Assembly (NCBI RefSeq): GCF_004011695.2
Contig: NC_082423.1
Location: forward strand, 1,302,001-1,366,000
Origin: Ascochyta rabiei
Lineage: Eukaryota > Ascomycota > Dothideomycetes > Pleosporales > Didymellaceae
Length of the DNA stretch: 64,000 nt
Reading direction: 5' to 3'
Shown here in pieces: positions 15,588 to 63,520 of this stretch. Both the position numbers and the translations under genes were made by a program. Below the pieces are notes generated by a model, which was given only the letters and a program-made list of their open reading frames with translations, had not been told where the DNA came from and did no database searches. Every line of letters begins with the position of its first letter. Position 1 is the first letter of the stretch.

Positions 15588-18015
15588 ATGATGGACGATC
15601 TTGACGCAAGGAACTCTTCTCATGATGTCAGATTTGTCGCGCTGTCGGAACTATCGTTGGACAGTCCAGCGATGACGCCATTTGATTTGCAGCCCCATGC
15701 TGCAGGCCTCGACAGCTATTTTAATAGCTGCTCTGCTTCTCCAACAGTCGTTTCGTCAACCACAAATGCCACACTACCGAAACAAGGTGGGCGCTTTAGC
15801 AAGGAAGCAATTCGTGTCCTCAAAACCTGGCTGAGGACGCATGAAAATAGACCTTATCCTCGCCCTGAAGACTTGCAATTCTTGCAGCAGCAAACTGGCC
15901 TTGATTGCAAACAAATAACGACCTGGTTTGCGAACGCTCGGCGTCGCGACCTTTCTCGCGCCCCTCGACCCCAGTCTCCGCAAGTAACAGCAAGCCCTGT
16001 TGACATTATTGCGCGGCCTGCTACACCAGCAGTGCAGCTTCGGACCCAGCACGAAGATCCTTTGCAGCGATGGGTAGAGTCACCACCAGAGCAAGAGGCT
16101 GCGCTTTTTGGTGATATCGTTCGTGCTGTAGCCACGCGCCCGGATCACACCGGTGGTAAGTTGTAATTGAACGCGTATAGCGCAATCAAGCTCACCTTTT
16201 CTCTAGATAAGGACTGCAAACCAGAAGCATTGTATTACTCATCCTCCGCAAGCAGTGCTGGAACATCTTTTTCTAATCCACTATCGGACTGCAACTCGTC
16301 TGGGTCTCGAAAGTCATATTCACTATCTCGAAAACCGCGCAGACGGAGAGTGAAGAAGAGCCATCGACCTAGAGAAGGTCACGCCGCATCCCAATTGCCA
16401 TTCCAATGCACCTTTTGTGTTGAAACATTCAAGACCAAGTATGATTGGCAACGTCATGAAAAGGCCCTACATCTCTCTCTAGAGCAATGGACGTGTGCAC
16501 CCGAAGGGCCCAGAGCTTCGGTGTTAGGTGGGTCTGGAGAGCTCTGTTGCGTATTCTGCGGTGAATTGTCTCCTGACGATGCCCATCTTAATACTCATCA
16601 GTACTCGGCCTGTCAAGCACGAGATGAGGGTGAGCGCAGCTTCCATCGGAAGGATCATCTCGTCCAGCATCTAAAGCTGGTACACAAGGTTGACAGCAAA
16701 CATGTCCAGTTAGACCGGTGGAAGACATCGACGCTAGATGTCCAATCAAGGTGTGGGTTCTGCACTCTGGCCATGAGTACCTGGACGGAGAGAGTGAATC
16801 ATCTGGCGGACCATTTTAAAGCGGGTGCAACAATGTCGCAATGGCAGGGTGATTGGGGATTCGAAGACCACGTCTTAGAGCGTGTGGAAGACAGTGTACC
16901 GCCTTGTAAGTGCTCAACCAGGTCGATAAGTAGTGCAGGAACAACAGTCTGATGAAACACTAGACTTCATCCATCTTGAGATGAATACGCCTTGGCCTTT
17001 ACGCGCAAGCGATACACCAATTGCCACGCTTGTCAACGCTTACGAACTCCTCAAATTTGAAGTGAACTTTTTCCGACAGAATTACCTTGACAAGAACGGA
17101 TCGCCACCGAATCATCGTGCTTTTCAACTCGAAGCATGCCGTACTGTGTTCGCATCAGATGCATTATCAGATAAGAAAGTCTCGACGCCGCAACGAGATG
17201 ATGACGAGTCTTGGCTTCGCGACTTGATCATGTCGAATCCAGATATCACACAAGAAGCTCTATTTGGGCCGCTCCGAACACCTTCTGAGGGCATTTCGAC
17301 GTTGCGAATATACGGCCGAACTCACCTCTTCGAACAATGTCCACTTGAAAATCAGCTCCTCGCTTTTGTGCGAGCTCAGGCTGATGCAGGCTTGCCAGAC
17401 TGGCGACTTCAGCAAGAAGCTTGCGATATCATTCGTCGCGCTGAGGCATCGTCCAATGCTACACTCGAAGGCTTTTCCGACTGGGTAATCCACGCTATTG
17501 GAGCTGACAGTGACTGGCTCCTACCATTCAAATTACGCGTGGGCTTGGACATTGGCGATCAATTTAATCCTGCCGCAGTTCCCTCACTCGAGTCAGTCGA
17601 TCATCAGCAAGTGTCTGCGCCATTTTTCCCGGAAGCCTTTACCCATGTTGGGCTCCCTGAAAACTCATCTAATGCACCTATTCATTACCTGGCTGCGCCT
17701 CCGTCCGCCTCCAATTTTCCGGACAGCTACTCACAGAGCAATAGGTCTATGGGCCCGAACTTCTTCCGTCTTTTTACTGGCGACCTCAGGCGCTGGGTCT
17801 TTGCGACAATGTCCCCCTCTAACCCGGGAAGTCACGTGCCGTCTGATACAGAGATCCAGCACCATGCGCGCTGGATCATGTATGAGTCTGATGACCCGTG
17901 GAATCAGACTGCAGCGGATCATCCGGAATGGCTTTGGCGATTTAAAAAGGACGTCGGAATTTTGAGGGAAGGGGAGGCGGCTGTGGGTGGGGATCCGGGA
18001 TTCCCGGCTCTATGA
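15588..18015 (+). CDS. Homeobox (TALE/KN type) and C2H2 zinc-finger transcription factor, 3 exons
   Basis: Predicted 772-residue nuclear DNA-binding regulator. Exons are 15588-16155, 16207-16905 and 16964-18015, with introns of 51 and 58 bp, both GTAAGT...TAG. Phases match at each joint and the summed length is a multiple of three. Residues about 67-124 form a homeodomain with the extra three-residue loop (RPYP) of the TALE class and the recognition-helix motif WFANARRR. A basic stretch RKPRRRRVKK (about 231-240) looks like a nuclear localisation signal. A C2H2 finger follows (about 255-278: C257, C260, H273, H278), then two or three degenerate fingers, including CVFCGELSPDDAHLNTHQ and CGFCTLAMSTWTERVNH. 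The 350-residue C-terminal exon is open throughout and contains a Trp-rich block near DDPWNQTAADHPEWLWRFK. Homeobox plus C2H2 fusions are a known, often expanded, fungal family with unclear targets. It sits alone between transposons and shows no RIP. Confidence 0.88.
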
Positions 18016-21081: not shown

Positions 21082-21355
21082 AAATAGTAACTAATATGCA
21101 ACTTAAACGCCTATAAGCCTTAGTTTTAGGAAGGCTAAGGCTACTTTAGCTAGTACTTAATAGGATAACAATATACAGTACGTGAAAAACAGTATCTTCT
21201 TTATGATTTCCTTTTACGTAGTTGCAACACAGTGTTTATAGGACAGGTCTAGCAAGCAGTTACAGACTAAGCAGTAGGCCTAGAAAAACAGCATAGAGTA
21301 AAAGGCGTTAGAAAGATCTAACACTAACAACACAGAACTAAGCTAGGCTTAGAAA

Positions 21356-21610
21356 TCTATTAGGACTTACAGTAAAAGGTCTACACATACCAGCAGTACA
21401 GAGCTAAGCTAGGCTTAGGAGTCTATTAGGACTTGCAGTAAAAAGTCCACACATGCCAGCAGTACAGAACCAAGCTAGGCTTAGAAATCTATTAGGACTT
21501 GCAGTAAAAAGTCTACACATGCCAGCAGTACAGAACTAAGCTAGGCTTAGGAACCTATTAGGACTTGTAGTAAAAAGTCTACACAGTTATAACAGTTACA
21601 GCCCTTACGT
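21356..21610 (+). repeat. 66-bp minisatellite in Gypsy-B (about 4 units)
   Basis: Units start at 21356, 21422, 21488 and 21554, an exact 66-bp period. The period is 22 codons, so copy number can change without shifting a frame. One frame gives a Ser/Thr/Lys-rich repeat (RTCSKKSTHASST core) upstream of the gag-like region. Confidence 0.8.
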
Positions 21611-43733: not shown

Positions 43734-46005
43734 TTACTTGTATATCTTCCCTGGTCGGTCTCCTACCCAGCGTTCTGCCCATTTGATCATCATTTCCTGC
43801 CATTGGGCGAGATTATCTGACTTCGCTATCGTGTGGCCCTCATCTGGAAACATGAGAAACTGAGATGGCACGCCTAAAATCTGGCATGTGTTGTATGCTG
43901 CGAGGCTCTCAGATATGGGCACACGATAGTCAATGTCTCCATGAGTGAAAAACATTGGTGTTCTCCAACTTTGGCATAAGCGAGATGGATCCCACTTCGC
44001 CCACTGTTCAGGGTCCTCCCATGGGAAGCACCCAAAATCTGCCTTGTAAATGACAGGCAGGTCTCCACCCAGTAAGTTCCGGACGGAAAACACCCCTGCG
44101 TGCACAATCAGTGCGCAGAATCGAGCGGACAGACTGTTCCCCGCTATCCAGTTCATCATGTATCCACCAAAACTGTAGCCTGCTCCAACAACGCAAGACA
44201 AATCGACGAACGGCATGGATGTTTCCATGTGAGAGAAGAGACACTCGAGATCTCTTAGCGTCTTGTTGCCCCAGTTTTGATAGATTGAAGATGCGAATGG
44301 AACTCCGTATCCTGTCGAGCCGCTAATGTTTGGCGTGATGACCACATAACCTTGATCTGTCCAGAGTAACGGGTTCCAGACCCTCGCCCAGCAGTCTCTC
44401 CAAGCATCGTTCGGGCCTCCATGCAGTATAATGATCAGTGCATATCTTTTCTTAGGATCAAAACTCCCAGGCTTATGAACAAAAGCTGATACGGTGGTCT
44501 CGGCACCCTGGAAGGAGATCTTGTCATGTGTTGCAAAACAGGATGGAATGCAATGCTCAGCGATCAGGTCAACACGAGCTGGACAGTCCACACCCATTGA
44601 CACAATCTCGATGATTCCTGCCCTATCAAATGTTGATCGGACCACCAAGAGGTTTTCCTGGCCTCCTGGTGCTGTTAAAGGAAACAGTGACGAGGTGCAG
44701 CCATCGCGTACTATTGGCATGTAAAACCCCTTCCAGGCCCTGGTTCCGTGACTTTGAGACAAGGAAATCTTCCAGACAGACATGCTACCTTCCTCATCTA
44801 TGATAGCATAAAGAGTTGATGAGCTTTTGGAGCTCCAAGATATTGAAAGTATCCGCGGGTTCAAAGGGCCAGCACCTGTTCCCTGCTGAGCTGGAAAGAG
44901 ACTGACCCGATACGTATCCTTGGGACTAGCAAGAGAAACGATAAAGACTGAATCGTGATCGAAACAGTTCTCCGAACTCTGGGACTGGAGAAATGTAGCA
45001 AAGAGTCCATCGTGGGAAACACAAAACGAATGGGGCATCCCAGTCCAGGTCTTCCAACCAAGTTGTGTTATCTTAGACACTCTGTCTTGGTCTAGCCAAC
45101 GTTTCTCTAGATAGAAAAGCTCCCTGTGAACCAAGGTGGTATTCCCGATGTCAGTGTGTTCCGTAGAGAATAACAAGCCGTGTGGACTGAGTACGAAGGA
45201 TACCCCATTCGGCCACAGCCCAAGACGTAGGTCGAGGCCCTCTAGGATATCGAGCGGAGGAGACTCTGAGAGACGCAACTCTAATCCCACTCTTTTCAGT
45301 AACATGAAATATATAGTAGATCTGACTTCCGCTTTAGGGCGGTAGCATTTTCCGAAGCGAAGAGGGAAATCGGTAAATAACATTCCGGAACCTCGGAATT
45401 CCGCCAAAGGGCTTTCTTCAACGGTTTTGGCCAGGGCCGATCCAAAAACGAGTCCGTATATTGAATTTGCGAGTTTTAGCAACTTCATGCGCGAAGCTAC
45501 ACATGGGACGCATCCAATCATCTGTTCCCTGCACTCAGAAGAAAAGTATTAGAGGAGATCTCTAGAATACTAGACAATAGGACATACTGACCTTGGAGAA
45601 GCACTCTCCATATCCATCGACCAAATTTGAGTTGTTTCATTACAGACGACGCTCCAAACAAGCACTTTGTGATCAAGCCACAGGGGTGAATCAAGTGACT
45701 GATTCCCGGGAATGACATAGTTTTGACCATCTGATATGCGTTTAACTCGGTTTGTAAGCAACTCAGAGCCATACAGTGTCCCACATCTGGCTTCTGAGAG
45801 AAGTATGTAGCTACAGTCGTGATTAGGCAGTACGTTTAGCCAACGGTGAACCTTCGACAAGGTTCTAAGGGAACCGGATGTTAGCAAAACGTCAGAAGGA
45901 TTACATAGCAAACCTAAGCGCAGCAGGAATTACTTACTTCCACATAGGTCGAGGTTTACTAGTCTCCTCGCTCTGAAGCCCACATTCTGGATGCACTGTA
46001 TCCAT
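43734..46005 (-). CDS. S9-family serine peptidase (dipeptidyl-peptidase 5 / acylaminoacyl-peptidase-like), 3 exons
   Basis: Predicted 711-residue peptidase. Exons on the minus strand are 46005-45938, 45864-45592 and 45528-43734. Introns are 73 bp (GTAAGT...TAG with a perfect GCTAAC branch site) and 63 bp (GTCAGT...CAG). Phases match and the total is a multiple of three. The C-terminal alpha/beta-hydrolase domain carries HGGP (oxyanion region), the nucleophile motif GAGYSFGGY (Ser566), HGDIDYRVP (Asp647) and DEGHTI (His679), so the triad is complete. The N-terminal 400 residues fit a beta-propeller but are poorly conserved. There is no signal peptide, although fungal DPP5 is often secreted, so a cytosolic role is likely. 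Start: first Met in frame. Intron 2 has an alternative in-frame pair (GTATGT / GAACAG). It diverges from the repeat-peptide gene, sharing about 950 bp of promoter, which suggests co-regulation and possibly precursor processing (inference). Confidence 0.87.
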
Positions 46006-46957
46006 TCTGGTAGTGTAATAGGTCAAAATACAAAATTGTGTTCTCTTAGACACGGAAATCTTCCCTGGGAATTTTCAATATGGTAAAAAGTTTAGAAAAA
46101 TAAGTGCAAAGCATAAATAACTGTCATTAGGCAGTAGCAGGTAAGAGAGTCCAAGATCGGCAGGTCTTGAGCCTACATTCCGGTAATTAGTAACCGAAAG
46201 ACGTCGTTTAGATCGTTGATGCTGATGTCATTTCCAGGGTTTCTATTGAGGCATCATAATGGGTCCGGATGTCAAACTCAACGCATGGCCTCGTAAGCCG
46301 TAGGCCATTTCACTATGATCCGTAGCATGGGTTAGCTCAGTGGCTTACGTAGCATGCATATCGTGTGCAACCTACGTACCATCAATAGCTTCCGGAGCGT
46401 CCGGAGCGTCCGGAGCTTTGCTGTTACCTAGAACATAGTATGAATGGACAGAAGAATACCAGGGTTATCCCGTACAGTGGAGTGTACATTTAGTCAAAGT
46501 TTAAAACCCTTGAACACTGCGTAAGCTATGCCGTTGTACAGCGCTTAGCTGCATTTTAGACACGGGATGATTTTACTTAGAGGTTCGGCACTGAATCTCT
46601 TCGCCGATGTAAAAGCTAAACGGACCAGAGGGCGCATTAAACTTTGTGGAAACGGCAAAATATTGCTGAGGCAAGAATTGGTCAAATCCATGTTCATAGC
46701 TGCATGCAGCTATTTCTGGTACTCGGCTTCAGATAAAGCTCTCGGCGCGCGTTAAAGCGAAATAGTCAGAAATGCCGACAAATAGCGCAGACGGACCGAA
46801 CCATTTCAATGACATAGTGACTTTGGCTTTGTTAGGACGCACTTTTCATATAAAGCCTGTCTTACCTACACGGCTCATATTCCTTAGCATTCATCTATCT
46901 ACAAACACAGGACCATTCATCACTTCAACTTTTCTATCTATCTTTATATCTTACATC
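46006..46957. promoter_or_regulatory. Divergent promoter between the peptidase and the repeat-peptide gene
   Basis: It contains three TCCGGA hexamers at exact 9-bp spacing (46391, 46400, 46409) and a fourth near 46264. These are CGG/CCG-type sites of the kind bound by Zn2Cys6 fungal regulators. A TATA box (TATAAAG, 46849-46855) lies about 105 bp before the repeat-peptide start, followed by a pyrimidine-rich leader. The open frame 46567-46755 has no coding support. Confidence 0.5.
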
Positions 46958-47447
46958 ATGGCCACTACTGTATGTTGGAAACGAGAAATGCCTTGGATTT
47001 ACAGTAAATAACTTTAGAAAGGAGTCCGTACGTACCGAGGACATCGTCTTCATCAACGAGGCCCAGTATGCCAATGTCAAAGCCGGCGTCGAGGCTGAGG
47101 ACATCGTCTTCATCAATGAGGCCCAGTATGCCAATGTCAAAGCCGGCGTCGAGGCTGAGGACATCGTCTTCATCAATGAGGCCCAGTACGCCAATGTCAA
47201 AGCCGGCGTCGAGGCTGAAGACATCGTCTTCATCAACGAGGCCCAGTATGCCAATGTCAAAGCCGGCGTCGAGGCTGAGGACATCGTCTTCATCAATGAG
47301 GCCCAGTACGCCAATGTCAAAGCTGGCGTCGAGGCTGAAGACATCGTCTTCATCAATGAGGCCCAGTACGCCAATGTCAAAGCCGGCGTCGAGGCCAAAG
47401 ATATTGTCTTCATCAACGAGGCCCAGTATCTTAGTGTATGCGCGTAG
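46958..47447 (+). CDS. Repeat-peptide precursor: 20-residue unit repeated about 6.8 times (candidate RiPP precursor)
   Basis: Not a family I recognise. The coding frame is GAG-GAC-ATC from 47037, reading EDIVFINEAQYANVKAGVEA six times, then a last unit changed to KDIVFINEAQYLSVCA and a TAG stop (47445-47447). Across units the nucleotide changes (GAG/GAA, GAC/GAT, ATC/ATT, AAC/AAT, TAT/TAC, GCC/GCT) are silent in this frame, except the final unit's first residue and its tail. In the other two plausible frames the same changes alter residues. Only this frame is under protein-level constraint. There is no ATG in the frame. The proposed start is ATG at 46958 (after a TATA box and CT-rich leader) with exon 46958-46969, an intron 46970-47021 (GTATGT...AAAG, 52 bp) and exon 47022-47447, giving 145 residues. 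The acceptor is weak, so the 5' end is uncertain. No signal peptide and no Kex2 dibasic sites are seen. Confidence 0.65.
47037..47427 (+). repeat. 60-bp in-frame tandem repeat
   Basis: Six full units (47037, 47097, 47157, 47217, 47277, 47337) and a partial seventh (47397-about 47429). The period is exactly 60 bp. Units differ at zero to three positions from a neighbour, and the seventh is most diverged. Long open frames on the opposite strand and in another plus frame arise only because the period is a multiple of three. Confidence 0.97.
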
Positions 47448-48073: not shown

Positions 48074-49219
48074 TTAGTTAGAGCAAACGACCAGTATTCG
48101 AACCTCAATGCTTTCACGTTGTACACTGCATTTGTGCGGGTCGTTCCTCCAAAATGCAGTGTGAGGGCAGTCTGATAGTATGTAAGTACGACCACACGTC
48201 CACCTTGGAGGGAAAGGGGCGCATTGTTCTAAACCTACAACGTGTGCTACTCCGCTCTTCCGTGTCGTGCTGTTTGAATATAATGACCTCATCAATTTGT
48301 TGGTTACTCAACCAATACCACTTTTGCTCTTCGCAGGGAGCTGCATAATTTGTTTGACTGATATAGTCAGGGTTGACGATAAAGTCCCCATGAATGCATT
48401 TATCATGCTGAACTGTGGATGCATCGCAGATGGCAAGTTGACAGTCTTCAACTGGATTGTTTATCGGCTTCCAAAAACTAGGTTGGCTTCTCGTCAGTAC
48501 TTAATCAAACAAACGAAACAAAATTGGTGACATGCTTTATCAATCGAACACGCTTCGATGCTAAGATGGTGTCGGTCTCTGCGCCCAACAATGCTCGGAT
48601 ACGTTTGTCCCCACCGTAGTAGTTACAGTCTACTCTAAAGTTAGTCGTTCGAAAGGGTGGGGTATTATAATATTCTACGCTTACCGTTGTGGACGTAGGT
48701 ATCAGGGGCAAATGCTCGGAAATCTTGGCCAGTCATGTCGGCGTTGGCAAACATTTCGTCTTTCTTCGCAGTGCGAAACTATTTTACATACTCAGCAATA
48801 GTCGCATGTCTCGCACTCTTGCATGTGCTTGGAGAGATACTGACCACCCAATTGATGACTTTGACCTGCTCTACTTGTACTCCCTCTGCCGTCAATACGT
48901 CGCGAGCCAGCTGTTGGATTGCATCAAGATATCCACCAGGTTCTTTGATCGCCTCTTCATTTGCCGTAGACTGCTCAAACTTGTGCTGGATCGTAGTGAA
49001 TCCATTCTTCTCAAGCGTCACTTGGCCTGGATCTAAGCCTCGAATGTCAGTGAGATGCTCTAGAGGGCCTTCCTCAAACAGCAAGTTATTCGTTGGAAAG
49101 CCCTCATCCACTTTACACGCAAGTGTGTACGGCCGAATAGCCTTGTAAATTTTAGATCGTTTGAGATATCTCAGCCGGGTCCAAATGTTTTGAGACGGGA
49201 GAAAAACGGAGGAAGTCAT
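48074..49219 (-). CDS. AsaB/CmcJ-family Fe(II)-type hydroxylase/desaturase, 5 exons
   Basis: Predicted 299-residue enzyme. Exons (minus) are 49219-48845, 48778-48685, 48629-48536, 48477-48239 and 48171-48074. All phases match and the sum is 900 bases. Introns are 66, 55, 58 and 67 bp. Intron 3 starts GC (GCATGT) and is a GC-AG intron that yields the expected family join VRLINFWKPI. Family hallmarks are PTNNLLFEEGP, DIRGLDPGQVTLEKNGF (about residues 58-74), the metal motif HxD in YVHND (His155, Asp157), KRIRALLGAE, NNPVEDCQLAICDAST, EEQKWYWLSNQQIDEVIIFKQ, CPHTAFW and RESIEVR. Members act in fungal secondary-metabolite clusters as non-heme oxygenases or desaturases. The gene diverges from the P450 and converges with the repeat-peptide gene. 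The substrate is unknown. Intron 4 has an alternative donor 12 bp upstream. Confidence 0.88.
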
Positions 49220-50105
49220 AGCGATGATGCGGTTAGGCAGTTACTGATCCAGGTGAAAGCCGAGGAACGAAGCTCATATAATGTTCCAATTGCCGATATT
49301 CTTTGGTAGAAACCTTAGCGTGCAGAGGAGTTATCTTTGATATGCCTAGAATTCGATTAGTTGCCTGCGGATGTAGCACCGTCGAGTTCACCGGCATGCC
49401 ACCCAGTGTAGCACCGCGAATTCACCGCGACCTCACCGAAAAACCGCCGGCATGCGACCATTGTTGAGGCCTAGTAGAGGTCTTATTTTTCGGAAGCGAT
49501 ACACAGATACCGTCAAAGTTCGGTTCTTTGGCCAGCAGGGCACGGCACGCCCCGGATAACCCTAGATAAATCTACACTAATTATAACACGTTCCGATGGT
49601 TTGAAAACAGACTCCACAGCATTTTATTAGCACATCTTGGCCTATATCTAAGAGCGTCTACGTACAAGGAGGGTGCCTGAACAAAGTAGAAATACGAGCC
49701 GCTTGCACTGAGCATCTGGTGATCTTTTACAAGAAGAAAACCCTGGCTGCGGCAAATCGTATTGCTACTCCGTTCAGGCACCCCCTTTGTAATCGTCTTG
49801 CACATTACCCAGCAGCGGCCCCATCGTGCCGCCCCGTGCTAGCGTTTTGCCGAAGAATCGATTTTTTACGGTTTCTGGACACGACGGAAACGACTGGTCT
49901 AGTCGGGCCATGTCTTTCTCGAGTCAGCTCACGATCTAAGACAGCCTTTATGTGAACCTAGTACGATCAAGATCTTGTTTTACTTGATATGGATGGCCGA
50001 CTCTCGAATATTTGAATGTTTGAAAACACTCCAATAAACTTCTGCAAAAGCTTCTGTCGAAACCAATTTGCCTTCGCAGCTGCACTTGAGATAGTTGCTG
50101 CAATC
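49220..50105. promoter_or_regulatory. Divergent promoter between the AsaB-like gene and the P450
   Basis: It contains a 22-bp element at 49449-49470 (core GCATGCGACCATTGTTGAGG) that recurs with two C/T differences 120 bp before the 2-oxoglutarate dioxygenase start (53738-53759). Nearby is a TTCACCGGCATGCCACC block (49387-49403) with relatives at about 52985 and 53630. Short open frames on both strands (49581-49955) have no coding support. An imperfect 18-bp inverted repeat links 49667-49684 and 49773-49790. Confidence 0.45.
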
Positions 50106-52029
50106 ATGCCAAATCTTTGTTACTTGATAGTTGCAAGTGGTCTTGTGACGGTAAGGGCCCAGTTCTAGTCCGTACTGAGTGACAGAATCTATCCTGACCA
50201 TCAAACCATAAGGTACTTTCAATAGCCCTCTACAGGCGGTTCTTCCATCCCCTCAGCAAATTCCCAGGACCCATCGCCTGTAGTGTCTCGCGTCTTCCGT
50301 GGGCATATCATGTGTGCGTAGGAGATTGGATACACAAAGTACATGCAATGCACGAAAGATACGGTTCTGTTGTACGAGTTGCACCGGACGAACTCTCATT
50401 CATTGACTCAGCTGCACTTCGGGACATTTATGGGCATCGTCCCGGAGGCGAATTTCCAAAAGCCATCCGTCTCTTTCGGGGAACGGACAAATTTCCAGTT
50501 TCTCTCCTGGTCACTCAAGACATTGAAGCACACCGCAAACTCCGTCGACGACTAGCACCTAGCTTCTCCGATCAGGCCATGCGATTGCAGGAGCCATCTA
50601 TGATCCGCTATGTGGATCTGCTCCTCAACCGTTTGAATAAATTATGTGGTATTGGAAACCTTGAAGTCGATCTTTCGATGTGGTTTAGTAAGTTAAAATT
50701 TCTAACCCAACGTTCTGCACACAGCACTAACATCATATTACAGACTTCACTACTTTCGATATGATTGGTGACTTATCTTTTGGAGAATCGTTCCAATGTT
50801 TAGAGAACTCCGCTTATCATTCTTGGATCTCCGCCCTGAATAGAATGACTAGACAAGGTGCTTATTTTGTTGTTCTAGGTAACATGGGTTTCGAATGGCT
50901 TGTTACGCTCTTGTTCAAGACTGGGAGATTAACAAGCCGAAACAAAAATTCGAATCTTGTATCCGAAAAACTTCTTCGACGTATGCAAATACAGAGGCAT
51001 GACTTCATAGAGGCCCTTCTAAGAGAAAACGAAAATGTACGCAACCCTTTCTCCAATTAACGTCAATCCATATTTGATTTTCTTGTTTGTAAGGTTGGAC
51101 ATGCTAATGGGAATCACAAAAGGACCAGCCATTACCTATGGAATCATTGACTGCAAATTGCAGCATGCTTATGCTCGGTGGCTCTGAAACCACCTCAACA
51201 CTTCTTTGTGGCGTCACATTCCTTTTAGTCACTAACTTGGAGTCATACAAGAAAGCAGTGCGAGAAGTTCGTGACACCTTCAAGTGTCTCGATGATATCA
51301 CTCTTACTTCCGTGTCCCAGCTTCATTTCATGCATGCCTGCATCAAAGAAGCGCTCAGGTATGTTGAGTTTGAGTTGTTTCGTACTACTATCAGTGCGTT
51401 AACAAAGACTTCGTCATGAGCAGACGATATCCACCCACTGCTGGAAGTCAACCCCGATTCGTCCCCCCAGGGGGGGCTAAGGTAGCAGGACATTTTGTCC
51501 CAGAGAAGGTAAACTGCCCTAAAGTCATTAATCTTCAGCCAAAGACGACAGAGAAACACTGACAAAATCTTAATGTTATAGACAGTCGTATCAATTTATC
51601 CTTTCGCGGCCAGGTATTTGAAAATTCATCCTTCCAATGAGGCCCTTAACTGTCACATCTTAGGAAGCTAATTTTTACTACAGTCTAAGCTCGACAAACT
51701 TTCGAAATCCCTTTGAATACTGCCCGGATCGACATCTAGATCCATCGAATACTGTGGATGATATGGCAGCATCCCAGCCTTTCAGTGTCGGTCCCAGAAA
51801 CTGCATCGGAAGAAAGTAAGTCATTTACCACAATGTCCATGATCTCAAGACTAAAAATGTTCCTAGTTTGGTATTTGCACAGAGTCGTTTGATACTCGCA
51901 AGAATTTTGTTTTCTTTTGAAATCGAACTTGCTGAAAGTAGCCGCGATTGGATGAATCAAAAGCATCACATCTTGTGGGACAAACCTCCCCTGAACGTGT
52001 ACCTAACTCCAGTAATGAGGGAATCATAG
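50106..52029 (+). CDS. Cytochrome P450 monooxygenase, 8 exons
   Basis: Predicted 486-residue membrane-anchored heme monooxygenase. Exons are 50106-50150, 50213-50687, 50744-51036, 51123-51358, 51424-51508, 51582-51613, 51684-51815 and 51867-52029. Introns are 51-86 bp, most with CTAAC/CTGAC branch sites. All phases match and the total is 1,461 bases. The N-terminus has a hydrophobic anchor then RRFFHPLSKFPGP. Other marks are RYGSVVRVAPDELSF, NFTTFDMIGDLSFGESF, helix I GGSETTS (290-296), ExxR EALR (347-350), CPDRHL in the PERF position and the heme loop FSVGPRNCIGR (Cys429). The C-terminus WDKPPLNVYLTPV is complete. The style resembles fungal CYP65-like enzymes (isotrichodermin C-15 hydroxylase type). 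It diverges from the AsaB-like gene and probably oxidises the same pathway intermediate (inference). Confidence 0.93.
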
Positions 52030-53009: not shown

Positions 53010-53577
53010 CATTTTCTGGTGAACATCGTCTGTTTTAGGCTGTTTTGGGGCAAACCTCCGAGCTAGTCAGGTAACAATTAGGTAACAGTGCGGGGCTCTG
53101 CATATGCCAAGATATCGAGATCTAATTAGGATATGTCTATCTAGCAAGTTAGTACTGTAGCAACATTAATATACCCTAGTATAGCTTATTTTAAATACCT
53201 TATAATGTTTAGAACCCCCTATTAACCTCTACATAACCTACTAGTTAGCTACAACGTACTAGTATTAGCTAATTCTTAATCTAAATACACACTGTATCTT
53301 ATTTACTTTAAGATTAGCTGCAGTTAGGATAATTGTAGGTTGCAACTACAGATAGGGATAAGCTGGGGCAGCTAATATAGGTACTGTTGTACTTACAAAC
53401 TCCCCTACAATTATCTACAACTATTTTTAGGTCGCTATTTTGGCTGCAATTAATACTACTGTAATGCTGGAGAGTGACTGAAGGGGTGTTGTTGAGTGGT
53501 GGGTCACCACTAGCAATCTAATTAGCCCTCGGCGATTTCCTTAAAGAGCCTAGAACAGACGATGTTCACCAGAAAAT
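53010..53577. mobile_element. MITE-like element with terminal inverted repeats
   Basis: CATTTTCTGGTGAACATCG (53010-53028), continuing through TCTGTTTTAGGCTG, is repeated in reverse complement at about 53547-53576. The paired ends are about 30 bp with one or two mismatches and enclose about 500 bp that is AT-rich and RIP-like (CTA, TTA and TAG abundant). No ORF. It lies in the upstream region of the dioxygenase gene. Confidence 0.6.
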
Positions 53578-53711
53578 CCGGTATGGCACCGCAAACTTCC
53601 CGGCATGCCGACCCATGAAGCATCGAGTATTCACCGACATGCCATCCGATATGGCACCGCAAACTTCCCGGCATGCCGATCTGTGAAGCATTGAGTATTG
53701 ACCGACATACC
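53577..53711 (+). repeat. Two 67-bp direct repeats before the dioxygenase
   Basis: Units 53577-53643 and 53645-53711 (period 68) share TATGGCACCGCAAACTTCCC, then GGCATGCCGA and GAGTATT..ACCGACAT. Differences are mainly C/T or G/A. They end about 170 bp before the start codon. Confidence 0.75.
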
Positions 53712-53737
53712 GCTCAGTATACTACGGTAGATCTACC

Positions 53738-53759
53738 GGCATGTGACTATTGTTGAGGC
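53738..53759 (+). promoter_or_regulatory. Shared 22-bp upstream element
   Basis: It is 20 of 22 identical to 49449-49470 in the AsaB/P450 promoter and lies 120 bp before the dioxygenase ATG. It is either a common regulatory site or a relic of one dispersed repeat. Confidence 0.4.
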
Positions 53760-53879: not shown

Positions 53880-55447
53880 ATGACGTCTCTTCTCTCACCC
53901 CCTATGCTATCGGTTACGAATCAGAATCGTATGTCTCTTTACTCTCCATACATTTGTCTTCGCTCACGAGTTTTAAGTGCGTTACGCTGAGCCCCATGTA
54001 ATTGATTTTCAATCACTGCAAGCAGCGACTATCGAGGGTGCATTTGATCAATCTTTATTCGAGGTATTAAAGAACGCCGCGCCCACTGGACTTCTGCATA
54101 TTGTTAATCATGGCCTTGATCCAAGCCTTGTACGACTTCTCGAGCTTGCAAGAGTTTTCTTATTCTAATAATTGGTTTTCTAGTTTCAGAAACTCCGAGC
54201 GATCACATACACATATATGATGACAGCAACAGCAGAGGAGAAGGATGCAGCGTCTACTGTAAACGGGACAGGTTCTTTCGAGGGTTACAAACCACGCACT
54301 GATGAAGAGTAAGCTTCGTTTTAATTTGATGCAATGCAAAATCAGTAACCCTTGGGAAGAAAGCGCAAAAGTGTCTTGCCAGTAATAGAAGAGTACAATT
54401 ACGATTATCACTCCAGCGGAACGATAAATCGACCAAAGCTTATCAAAGACAACGAAGAGCCTTTATCTAAGATCTTCAATGTAAGTATACAACGGGACTA
54501 CATGTAGAGGGTATGTACACGCTAACCACTTAAAGTTCTATCATCAGGAACTCACACCACACTTGTTGGATTTCATTGGCAAGTTCTGTGGGTTACAGCC
54601 TGGAGTTTTGCGGCAGACGCATGAAGAGTCCAGTGAAGTGGCGCATTTGCTTCTGTACCGTAAGTGCTTGACTACGAAAATTCTAACGTCAAGTCTCCTA
54701 CTGCGTCACTGCTGTAAAGTGATGCGTCTTCTTCCTTTGGAAGTAAACAGTAACTAATCTTTACGACACAGATCCCAGATGGTACGAACATTTTGCAAGA
54801 AAAAGGGCGGCATACGCTGGTCACACAGACATCGGATCACTCACGTATCTATATGCAAATCCGGTGGCTAGCTTGCAGGTTTATGGTACGCGAGGTTGGG
54901 AATATGTTGCTTATATTCCCAACTCGATTGTCGTCAACATGGGAGATGCAATGCAATTTTTAACAAAAGGTATGATGAATGCAACACTTCACCGAGGTAC
55001 GTAATACTTTTTTGTGCGCATAGAACGCGACGTAAGCTAACCATTAACTTCTTGGATACTTGTAGTTATCAAACCTACCTCCGATCAGAATGAGGCTATA
55101 AGAACGGCACTTGTTTACTTTGTTCATCCGAACCATTCTTCGATGTCTGCATCTTTATCACATTTCCAACAACTGCGAGCTCACTACACTCGCGAGACCA
55201 AAAAATCTCCAGGATGTCTCATCAATGGTATGGGTCGTAAGTTATGACCTTAACTGATTTTGCATGCAATTATTTAATGTCATTTGCAGTGAATCGAGTG
55301 ATATCAAGCCTTTCGGCTATTAGAGAAGATCCATATCTCTCACTAGTTGACTATAAAGCGTGGGAATCATCAAGGAACGGTGGCTTAGTAGCTTCACCCC
55401 GAGAGTTTTGCGTCAATTTTGAGACCCTGGCTGTTAATTTGGTGTAA
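53880..55447 (+). CDS. Fe(II)/2-oxoglutarate dioxygenase (isopenicillin-N-synthase-like), 8 exons
   Basis: Predicted 368-residue soluble oxygenase. Exons are 53880-53928, 53978-54129, 54190-54308, 54360-54480, 54548-54659, 54772-54996, 55066-55236 and 55290-55447. Introns are 49-112 bp and all phases match (1,107 bases). An N-terminal DIOX_N-type region includes VIDFQSL and GLLHIVNHGLDPSL (to residue 67). The iron ligands are seen as HTD (His202, Asp204) and His258 in TLHRV, at family spacing. Arg272 (IRTALVYF) is the likely 2-oxoglutarate anchor, but the usual RxS motif reads RTA, so the Ser is missing. The join at 54309-54359 uses a weak AAG acceptor. The stop codon TAA lies at the start of the tail of an inserted LINE, so the natural C-terminus may be slightly changed. 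It is the last gene of the putative cluster. Confidence 0.87.
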
Positions 55448-62040: not shown

Positions 62041-62211
62041 AGAGGGAAAACAGGTATAGGGTTAGACGAACATTAAAATTTTAAATTTTAAATTTTAGGG
62101 TGGAATAGGAAGCGCACAATTGCGCAAAGAGAACTTACTCTTCAGAATTCCAGCCTAAGCAGTGGTTCTTAAGTTATTGGCGCTGGAAGGGGGTGCTGTT
62201 GCGGGCGCAGG

Positions 62212-63520
62212 ACACAGAGCGCGCTAGGCTAAGAAGAGTTATTATTGCCTACCTCTACCTCTAGCGCCACGCAGCTAGCAACTACTGTAGCTAAGCCTAG
62301 AGAGGTAGAACCTTATGCTGTAAGTTAAATATAACTTTTAGAGCTATAATATAAGTTATAGTTATAGTGCTGTTAGTAGGTACTACTACAGGGCAGGACG
62401 CAGAGCGCGCTAGGCTAAGAAGAGTTATTATTGCCTACCTCTACCTCTAGCGCCACACAGCCAGTAACTACTGTAGCTAAGCCTAAAGAGGTAGAACCTT
62501 ATGCTGTAAGTTAAACGTAACTTGCAGAGCTATAATATAAGTTGTAGTTATAGTGCTGTTAGTAGGTACTACTGCAGCGCAGGACGCAGAGCGCGCTAGG
62601 CTAAGAAGAGTTATTATTGCCTACCTCTACCTCCAGCGCTACGCAGCTAGTAACTACTGTAGCTAAGCTTAGAGAGGTAGAACCTTATGCTGTAAGTTAA
62701 ACGCAACTTACAGAGCTATAATATAAGTTATAGTTATAGTGCTGTTAGTAGGTACTGCTACAGCGCAGGACGTAGAGCGCGCTAGGCTAAGAAGAGTTAT
62801 TATTACCTACCTCTACCTCTAGTGCTACGTAGCTAGTAACTACTATATCTAAGCCTAAAGAGGTAGAACCTTATACTGTAAGTTAAACGTAACTTACAGA
62901 GCTATAATATAAGTTGTAGTTATAGTGCTATTAGTAGGTACTGCTGCAGCGCAGAACGCAGAGCGCGCTAGGCTAAGAAGAGTTATTATTACCTACCTCT
63001 ACCTCTAGCGCCACACAGCCAGTAACTACTGTAGCTAAGCCTAAAGAGGTAGAACCTTATGCTGTAAGTTAAACGTAACTTGCAGAGCTATAATATAAGT
63101 TGTAGTTATAGTGCTGTTAGTAGGTACTACTGCAGCGCAGGACGCAGAGCGCGCTAGGCTAAGAAGAGTTATTATTGCCTACCTCTACCTCCAGCGCTAC
63201 GCAGCTAGTAACTACTGTAGCTAAGCTTAGAGAGGTAGAACCTTATGCTGTAAGTTAAACGCAACTTACAGAGCTATAATATAAGTTATAGTTATAGTGC
63301 TGTTAGTAGGTACTGCTACAGCGCAGGACGTAGAGCGCGCTAGGCTAAGAAGAGTTATTGTTGCCTACCTTTATCTCTAGCGCCACACAGCCAGCAACTA
63401 CTACAGCTAAGCCTAGGCAGGTAGAACCTTATGCTGTAAGTTAAACGCAGCTTATAGAGCTACAATCTAAGATGTAGATATATTATACTATAACTTATAG
63501 TTATAGATATATAATTCTTT
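62212..63520. repeat. 186-bp satellite array (7 units) with higher-order duplication
   Basis: The landmark GAGCGCGCTAGG recurs at 62217, 62403, 62589, 62775, 62961, 63147 and 63333, an exact 186-bp period. Units 2 and 5 and units 3 and 6 appear identical over most of their length, while units 1, 4 and 7 differ, so a 558-bp block was duplicated recently. Variation between other units is largely C/T and G/A. Each unit has a self-complementary pair (CTACCTCTACCTCTAG and CTAGAGAGGTAG). Confidence 0.92.

What the first reader, a model, noticed from the sequence alone, without database searches (positions are those of the whole stretch)
46958..47447. Hidden gene for a 20-residue repeated peptide, revealed by silent changes between repeats
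The 60-bp tandem repeat has open frames on both strands, but between the first six units only silent differences occur in one frame (EDIVFINEAQYANVKAGVEA). The last unit carries one replacement at its first residue and a new end before a stop. That pattern is expected of a coding repeat under selection or gene conversion plus selection. The frame has no ATG, so it needs an upstream exon; ATG 46958 with a 52-bp intron fits TATA box, leader and phase. I know of no family with this unit.
Basis: partly seen in the sequence, partly recalled or inferred. Interest (0 to 1): 0.9.

Follow-up and report, generated by a model that had tools for sequence, protein, structure and literature searches.

The report
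Repeat peptide gene in oxidase cluster
In a fungus that is likely an Ascochyta, a 60-base unit repeated almost seven times has a plus-strand frame with coding-like codon usage, and because it lies among genes for a peptidase and three oxidising enzymes it is likely the precursor of a modified small peptide that the peptidase would cut out.

Summary
The array is real: 6.6 copies of a 60-bp unit at 47037-47429, the only match found in the 40.9-Mb genome. Its codon score is reached by 1 of 4000 shuffled units and 1 of 2917 non-ORF 60-mers, but by 9% of 1162 coding windows. Seven of eight variable sites are its third positions, while two other arrays in the window show no phase and no open frame. 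Around it, a GC-balanced island in AT-rich DNA holds an S9 peptidase, a CmcJ/NvfI-type oxidoreductase, a P450 and a 2OG-Fe(II) oxygenase; no ketosynthase, condensation or UstYa match lies in the window. I read the array as a multi-core precursor of a modified ribosomal peptide (RiPP) without Kex2 sites, likely processed by the S9 peptidase. No homologue was found; no transcript or product data were available; the first exon is unresolved.

The parts
46849..46854 (+). TATAAA box-like element upstream of the predicted start
   Evidence: read by eye; not tested
   Evidence: ties for first of 25 enumerated models under an ad hoc score; unproven
46970..47021 (+). predicted 52-bp intron, GTATGT ... 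AAAG
   Evidence: weak acceptor, a TTTAG lies 4 nt upstream of it
47022..47447 (+). predicted exon 2: ESVRT, seven 20-residue units (the last partial), LSVCA, stop
   Evidence: codon score of the unit reached by 1 of 4000 shuffles
47037..47429 (+). 60-bp tandem array, 6.6 copies
43737..45869 (-). S9 peptidase (DPP-V-like), two matched exons (43737-45542 and 45588-45869), divergent from the array
   Evidence: PF00326 5.1e-41; 90% identical to an Ascochyta lentis protein; exon matches
48074..49219 (-). CmcJ/NvfI-type oxidoreductase, predicted 301 aa with four introns (the third uncertain)
   Evidence: splice model; 138.5 bits against a cut-off of 80
50198..52029 (+). cytochrome P450 gene region (ends approximate, by eye)
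   Evidence: PF00067 in three ORFs, one of them over the curated cut-off; haem-binding motif near 51775-51816 read by eye
53880..55447 (+). 2OG-Fe(II) oxygenase gene region (ends approximate, by eye)
   Evidence: PF03171 2.2e-14 in the ORF 54747-55001

Best explanation
The array is likely an exon of a plus-strand gene for a small multi-core precursor protein, predicted to be made in the cytosol and cut by the neighbouring S9 peptidase into near-identical peptides that the adjacent oxygenases would modify. Shown: the array, the four enzyme genes around it, the coding-like codon usage of plus frame 0, and the absence of dibasic Kex2 sites in the predicted exon 2. Inferred: translation, the first exon, cytosolic location, that array and enzymes form one pathway, and which residues are cut or oxidised. 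In this reading the tandem units multiply the yield of one core peptide; selection plus turnover of units keeps the peptide the same while third positions drift. No PKS or NRPS match lies in the window, and a ribosomal precursor would fill that gap.
For: Codon score of plus frame 0: 1 of 4000 shuffles and 1 of 2917 non-ORF 60-mers reach it, 9% of 1162 coding windows do. Seven of eight variable sites are third positions, whereas two control arrays with the same transition bias have even phases and stops in all six frames. GC of the array 54.5% against 43.4% and 43.7% in the flanking kilobases. Neighbours: S9 peptidase, CmcJ/NvfI-type oxidoreductase, P450 and 2OG-Fe(II) oxygenase. No ketosynthase, condensation-domain or UstYa match in the window among 25, 10 and 25 matches in the genome. 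S9 peptidases cut the cytoplasmic precursors of cycloamanides and borosins (PMC9769878, passages).
Against: No homologue of the unit, so no conservation test. The antisense frame is nearly as silent (P 0.061 against 0.035), and another antisense frame has the second-best codon score, 0.285 against 0.336. The array's codon usage differs from that of its neighbours, which score -0.007, -0.042 and 0.046. The splice acceptor is weak. Co-location alone links array and enzymes; terpene synthases and other backbone types were not searched for genome-wide. No transcript or product data were available.
Confidence: 0.42

Rival explanations
1. A non-coding minisatellite: a GC-richer 60-bp unit amplified by slippage, with transition-type changes and open frames by chance.
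For: Open frames are expected in such a unit (mean 2.98 of 6). All eight variable sites are transitions, six of them at CpG, and two other arrays in the window vary mostly by transitions too (8 of 8 and 23 of 26 columns), so one mutation process explains the changes. No ATG in the frame and no homologue.
Against: Codon score reached by 1 of 4000 shuffles and 1 of 2917 non-ORF 60-mers; third-position phase 7 of 8, which the two other arrays lack.
Confidence: 0.2
2. A genuine coding repeat on the plus strand, but a structural or other protein that has nothing to do with the neighbouring enzymes.
For: The same coding evidence; codon usage unlike the neighbouring genes; co-location is the only link to them.
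Against: The array lies between the S9 gene and the oxygenase genes in one island bounded by AT-rich DNA.
Confidence: 0.25
3. The gene is on the minus strand: ATG 47473, 179 aa, unit YWASLMKTMSSASTPALTLA.
For: Open with its own ATG and no intron needed; as silent as the plus frame within units 1-6.
Against: Codon score 0.116 against 0.336; two replacements against one; no Pfam or NCBIfam match over a cut-off.
Confidence: 0.07
4. A dikaritin-type, Kex2-processed secreted repeat precursor whose signal-peptide exon was not recognised.
For: Multiple near-identical repeats that hold Tyr and Ile, with oxidative enzymes nearby.
Against: No KR, KK, RK or RR in P0001; no UstYa match in the window among 25 in the genome. 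By eye none of the 25 enumerated start models begins with a convincing signal peptide, but no signal-peptide program was run.
Confidence: 0.05

Closest known systems
Dikaritins and Kex2-processed repeat proteins (ustiloxins, phomopsins, asperipin-2a, victorin; possibly epichloecyclins)
   Same: A short ascomycete protein made of near-identical repeats, beside genes for oxidative enzymes and a peptidase
   Different: No dibasic Kex2 sites in P0001, no signal peptide recognised by eye, no UstYa match in the window. Definition from PMC7329392 and PMC9769878 (passages).
Cycloamanides (amatoxins, phallotoxins; MSDIN precursors with a prolyl oligopeptidase)
   Same: An S9-family peptidase, which in those pathways processes the precursor in the cytoplasm (PMC9769878, passage)
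   Different: Those are cut after conserved prolines (PMC9233826, passage) and have one core per precursor (recalled); this unit has no proline and is repeated; the S9 protein here is DPP-V-like.
Borosins
   Same: Cytoplasmic S9 processing (PMC9769878, passage)
   Different: Borosin precursors are fused to or paired with an N-methyltransferase (recalled); no such domain was seen in P0001.
CmcJ/NvfI/EfuI oxidoreductases (a neighbour, not the array)
   Same: The 301-aa splice model scores 138.5 bits over a cut-off of 80
   Different: Known members act on small molecules (recalled); a peptide substrate would be new.

Membership tests
Kex2-processed repeat protein / dikaritin | three or more tandem repeats of 8 or more residues | tested here: met
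   six full 20-residue units and a partial seventh, if the frame is translated
Kex2-processed repeat protein / dikaritin | repeats separated by KR, KK, RK or RR | tested here: not met
   none in P0001; one RK lies in the open frame just upstream of the predicted exon 2
Kex2-processed repeat protein / dikaritin | ER signal peptide | tested here: inconclusive
   none recognised by eye in 25 start models; the N terminus is unproven and no predictor was run
Dikaritin | UstYa (DUF3328) genes in the cluster | tested here: not met
   25 matches in the genome, a lower bound, none in the window
Cycloamanide | precursor cut after conserved prolines by a prolyl oligopeptidase | tested here: not met
   no proline in the unit; the peptidase is S9 but DPP-V-like
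Borosin | N-methyltransferase fused to the core | tested here: not met
   no full domain of any kind in P0001
RiPP in general | a ribosomal precursor that is modified and cut by cluster enzymes | not testable with these tools
   only gene proximity and coding signals
CmcJ/NvfI oxidoreductase (neighbour) | NF041278 score over its cut-off | tested here: met
   138.5 bits against 80, profile positions 11-262 of 263, on my splice model
Non-coding minisatellite | no frame preference in composition or in the changes between units | tested here: not met
   codon score and third-position phase

The most novel reading that the evidence does not exclude
A new architecture of fungal ribosomal peptide: a cytosolic multi-core repeat precursor without Kex2 sites, cut by a clustered DPP-V-like S9 peptidase and oxidised by CmcJ/NvfI-type, 2OG-Fe(II) and P450 enzymes. 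It joins dikaritin-like repeats to cycloamanide-like processing and would be missed by screens that require a signal peptide and dibasic sites.
Probability: 0.27. Interest if true: 0.8.

Novelty: new variant of a known kind. Interest (0 to 1): 0.55.

Why it matters
The published screen for fungal repeat precursors that I looked at requires a signal peptide and dibasic sites (PMC7329392, passages). If this array is a precursor, such screens would miss a route in which tandem cores are processed in the cytosol, and gene finders could miss the gene because its start codon would lie in a tiny separate exon. It would also give a substrate to a group of oxidative enzymes that has no visible PKS or NRPS partner in the window, and it suggests a simple search rule: in-frame repeat arrays next to S9 peptidases and iron oxygenases.

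Tried and rejected
Homologues: two protein searches with the unit found none (141-aa query, no candidate sharing three words; 325-aa synthetic repeat, 1 candidate, none at E <= 10). Viral contigs gave nothing. In prokaryotic genome contigs 27 stretches matched a pattern and none was a relative. In the own genome four further matches at E 0.02-0.12 and 12-15% identity, three of them with stops inside, were rejected. One weak PDB match (E 0.045, an IgA1 protease) was rejected.

Pfam hits to P0001 (three of the 11 listed are over their cut-offs: PF21558, PF04952, PF14511) were rejected because each adds up short partial matches over identical repeats and none covers its domain. The AlphaFold2 model was rejected as evidence: one of five models scored pLDDT 90.3, the others 35-43, on a single repetitive sequence. 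No Rfam family reached its threshold in the window. The sigma-70-type promoter scan is not informative for a fungus. A hexamer shared by the five upstream regions was rejected as not significant.

Splicing of the CmcJ-like neighbour: a first enumeration kept 0 of 3 models because my donor filter was too strict. The relaxed one gave 360 models; I used the second best by an ad hoc score because it keeps the stretch FWKPI, so the third intron is uncertain.

Papers: eight searches listed no paper that I recognised as describing a Kex2-free multi-core fungal precursor with an S9 peptidase and iron oxygenases. Long lists were seen in part (for example 15 of 618, 25 of 36, 12 of 64). Passages only were read of PMC8022934, PMC7329392, PMC7341154, PMC9233826 and PMC9769878. 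Most subscription papers are not held.

Full report
Where it lies. The window is C19:1302001-1366000 of a 40.9-Mb assembly in 23 contigs, and the array lies about 35 kb from the contig end. The S9 neighbour is 90% identical to a protein of Ascochyta lentis, so the host is likely an Ascochyta. The size is close to the 40,927,385 bp reported for A. rabiei ArME14 (PMC7341154, passages), but that paper gives 33 contigs, so the species and assembly are inferred. GC is 32-39% in the 2-kb blocks left of 44 kb, except one block of 51% at 16-18 kb, and 29-34% between 56 and 62 kb; the island between has 41-48% and holds the array and four enzyme genes.

The array. Six full units and a partial seventh, 60 bp each. 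Units 1-6 differ at unit positions 2, 20, 32, 47 and 59 (counted from 0); the aligned part of unit 7 adds 0, 5 and 8, after which it diverges. All eight are C/T or G/A differences, and six lie at CpG in the consensus used. In plus frame 0 seven are silent and one gives E>K. In the antisense frame six are silent and two give S>L and M>I. Within units 1-6 the two frames cannot be told apart, so the claim that silence picks out one frame fails.

Is it coding? I trained codon frequencies on 62 ORFs of at least 250 aa (23,904 codons) from 20 stretches of 10 kb of the same genome. Unit 2 scores 0.336 in plus frame 0, 0.285 and 0.116 in the two open antisense frames and 0.042 in the other open plus frame; the remaining two frames have stops. 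Of 4000 dinucleotide shuffles treated as tandem units 1 reaches 0.336 in any open frame, and of 2917 non-ORF 60-mers 1; of 1162 windows cut from the training ORFs 9% do (these windows are part of the training set). The antisense frame that scores 0.285 does badly on silence, with seven of eight changes replacing a residue, and the silent antisense frame does badly on codon usage. Plus frame 0 is the only frame that does well in both. Against this, the neighbouring genes score much lower (S9 -0.007, P450 piece -0.042, CmcJ-like piece 0.046), so the array is unlike its neighbours; high expression could explain that, but this is untested.

Controls. The 66-bp array at 21332 and the 186-bp array at 62205 vary by transitions in 8 of 8 and 23 of 26 columns, so a similar mutation bias acts there, but their phases are even (2:3:3 and 11:8:7) and all six frames hold stops (whole units only, 3 and 6, compared without gaps). 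The 7-of-8 third-position count has P 0.0035-0.019 depending on the CpG weight (0.006-0.021 for any phase). A test on possible C>T/G>A changes gives 0.035. This is suggestive, not strong on its own.

The start. The frame has no ATG. Of 25 in-frame two-exon models, ATG 46958 with GTATGT and a 52-bp intron ties for the top with ATG 46772 using the same intron, by an ad hoc score. The acceptor AAAG follows a better TTTAG by 4 nt; using TTTAG would put the array into a frame with stops. My splice model of the CmcJ-like neighbour also passes over a TTTAG for an AG five bases later, so such skipping is not excluded.

The neighbours. S9 peptidase: matched exons 43737-45542 and 45588-45869, minus strand; PF00326 5.1e-41; the NCBIfam Dpp5 model matches its C-terminal part at 167 bits, far below the cut-off of 900. 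Three other genomic places match its catalytic part at 37-42% identity and a fourth at 27%. CmcJ/NvfI-type oxidoreductase: 138.5 bits against 80 on my splice model. P450: PF00067 in three ORFs, one over the cut-off, with a haem motif read by eye. 2OG-Fe(II) oxygenase: PF03171 2.2e-14. No UstYa (25 matches in the genome), ketosynthase (25) or condensation domain (10) lies in the window; these counts are lower bounds. Terpene synthases and other backbone types were not searched for genome-wide; of the window's ORFs only those named were scanned against families.

Mechanism. Oxidative enzymes without a PKS or NRPS match, a peptidase gene that runs away from the array about 1 kb upstream, and a short protein of near-identical units together suggest a ribosomal peptide pathway. 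Known ascomycete multi-core precursors carry a signal peptide and dibasic sites for Kex2, whereas cycloamanides and borosins are cut in the cytoplasm by S9 peptidases (PMC9769878, passages; PMC9233826, passages). Here P0001 has no dibasic site, so S9 processing is the more likely route. Cut sites and modified residues are unknown. The first unit is preceded by SVRT where full units have GVEA, and the last ends in LSVCA where full units have ANVKA; this may mark the cut region, but it is a reading by eye.

What stays open. No homologue was found, and no transcript or product data were available. In my judgement the chance that the array is merely a minisatellite inside an enzyme island is about one in five.

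Noticed in passing
15588-18015: Plus-strand ORFs with homeobox KN, C2H2 zinc-finger and a weak Tc5-type DNA-binding match, in a 51% GC block inside AT-rich DNA.
   Followed up: partly
62205-63482 and 21332-21585: Two other tandem arrays (186 bp x 6.9 and 66 bp x 3.8) that vary almost only by transitions, without phase and without an open frame; used as controls.
   Followed up: partly
726, 2538, 4332, 18237: Short tandem copies of one 17-bp motif (ACRGGTRAGCGGATCAA or its reverse complement) at four separate places in the window.
   Followed up: no
53576-53743: A 68-bp repeat between the P450 and the 2OG oxygenase; similar words appear by eye near 49380-49470, perhaps transposon remnants.
   Followed up: no
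upstream of the five island genes: The hexamer TCGGCA occurs in all five upstream regions tested, but this is not significant given the number of hexamers tried.
   Followed up: partly
48074-49219: CmcJ/NvfI-type gene; five other places in the genome, partly in pieces, match the same family.
   Followed up: partly
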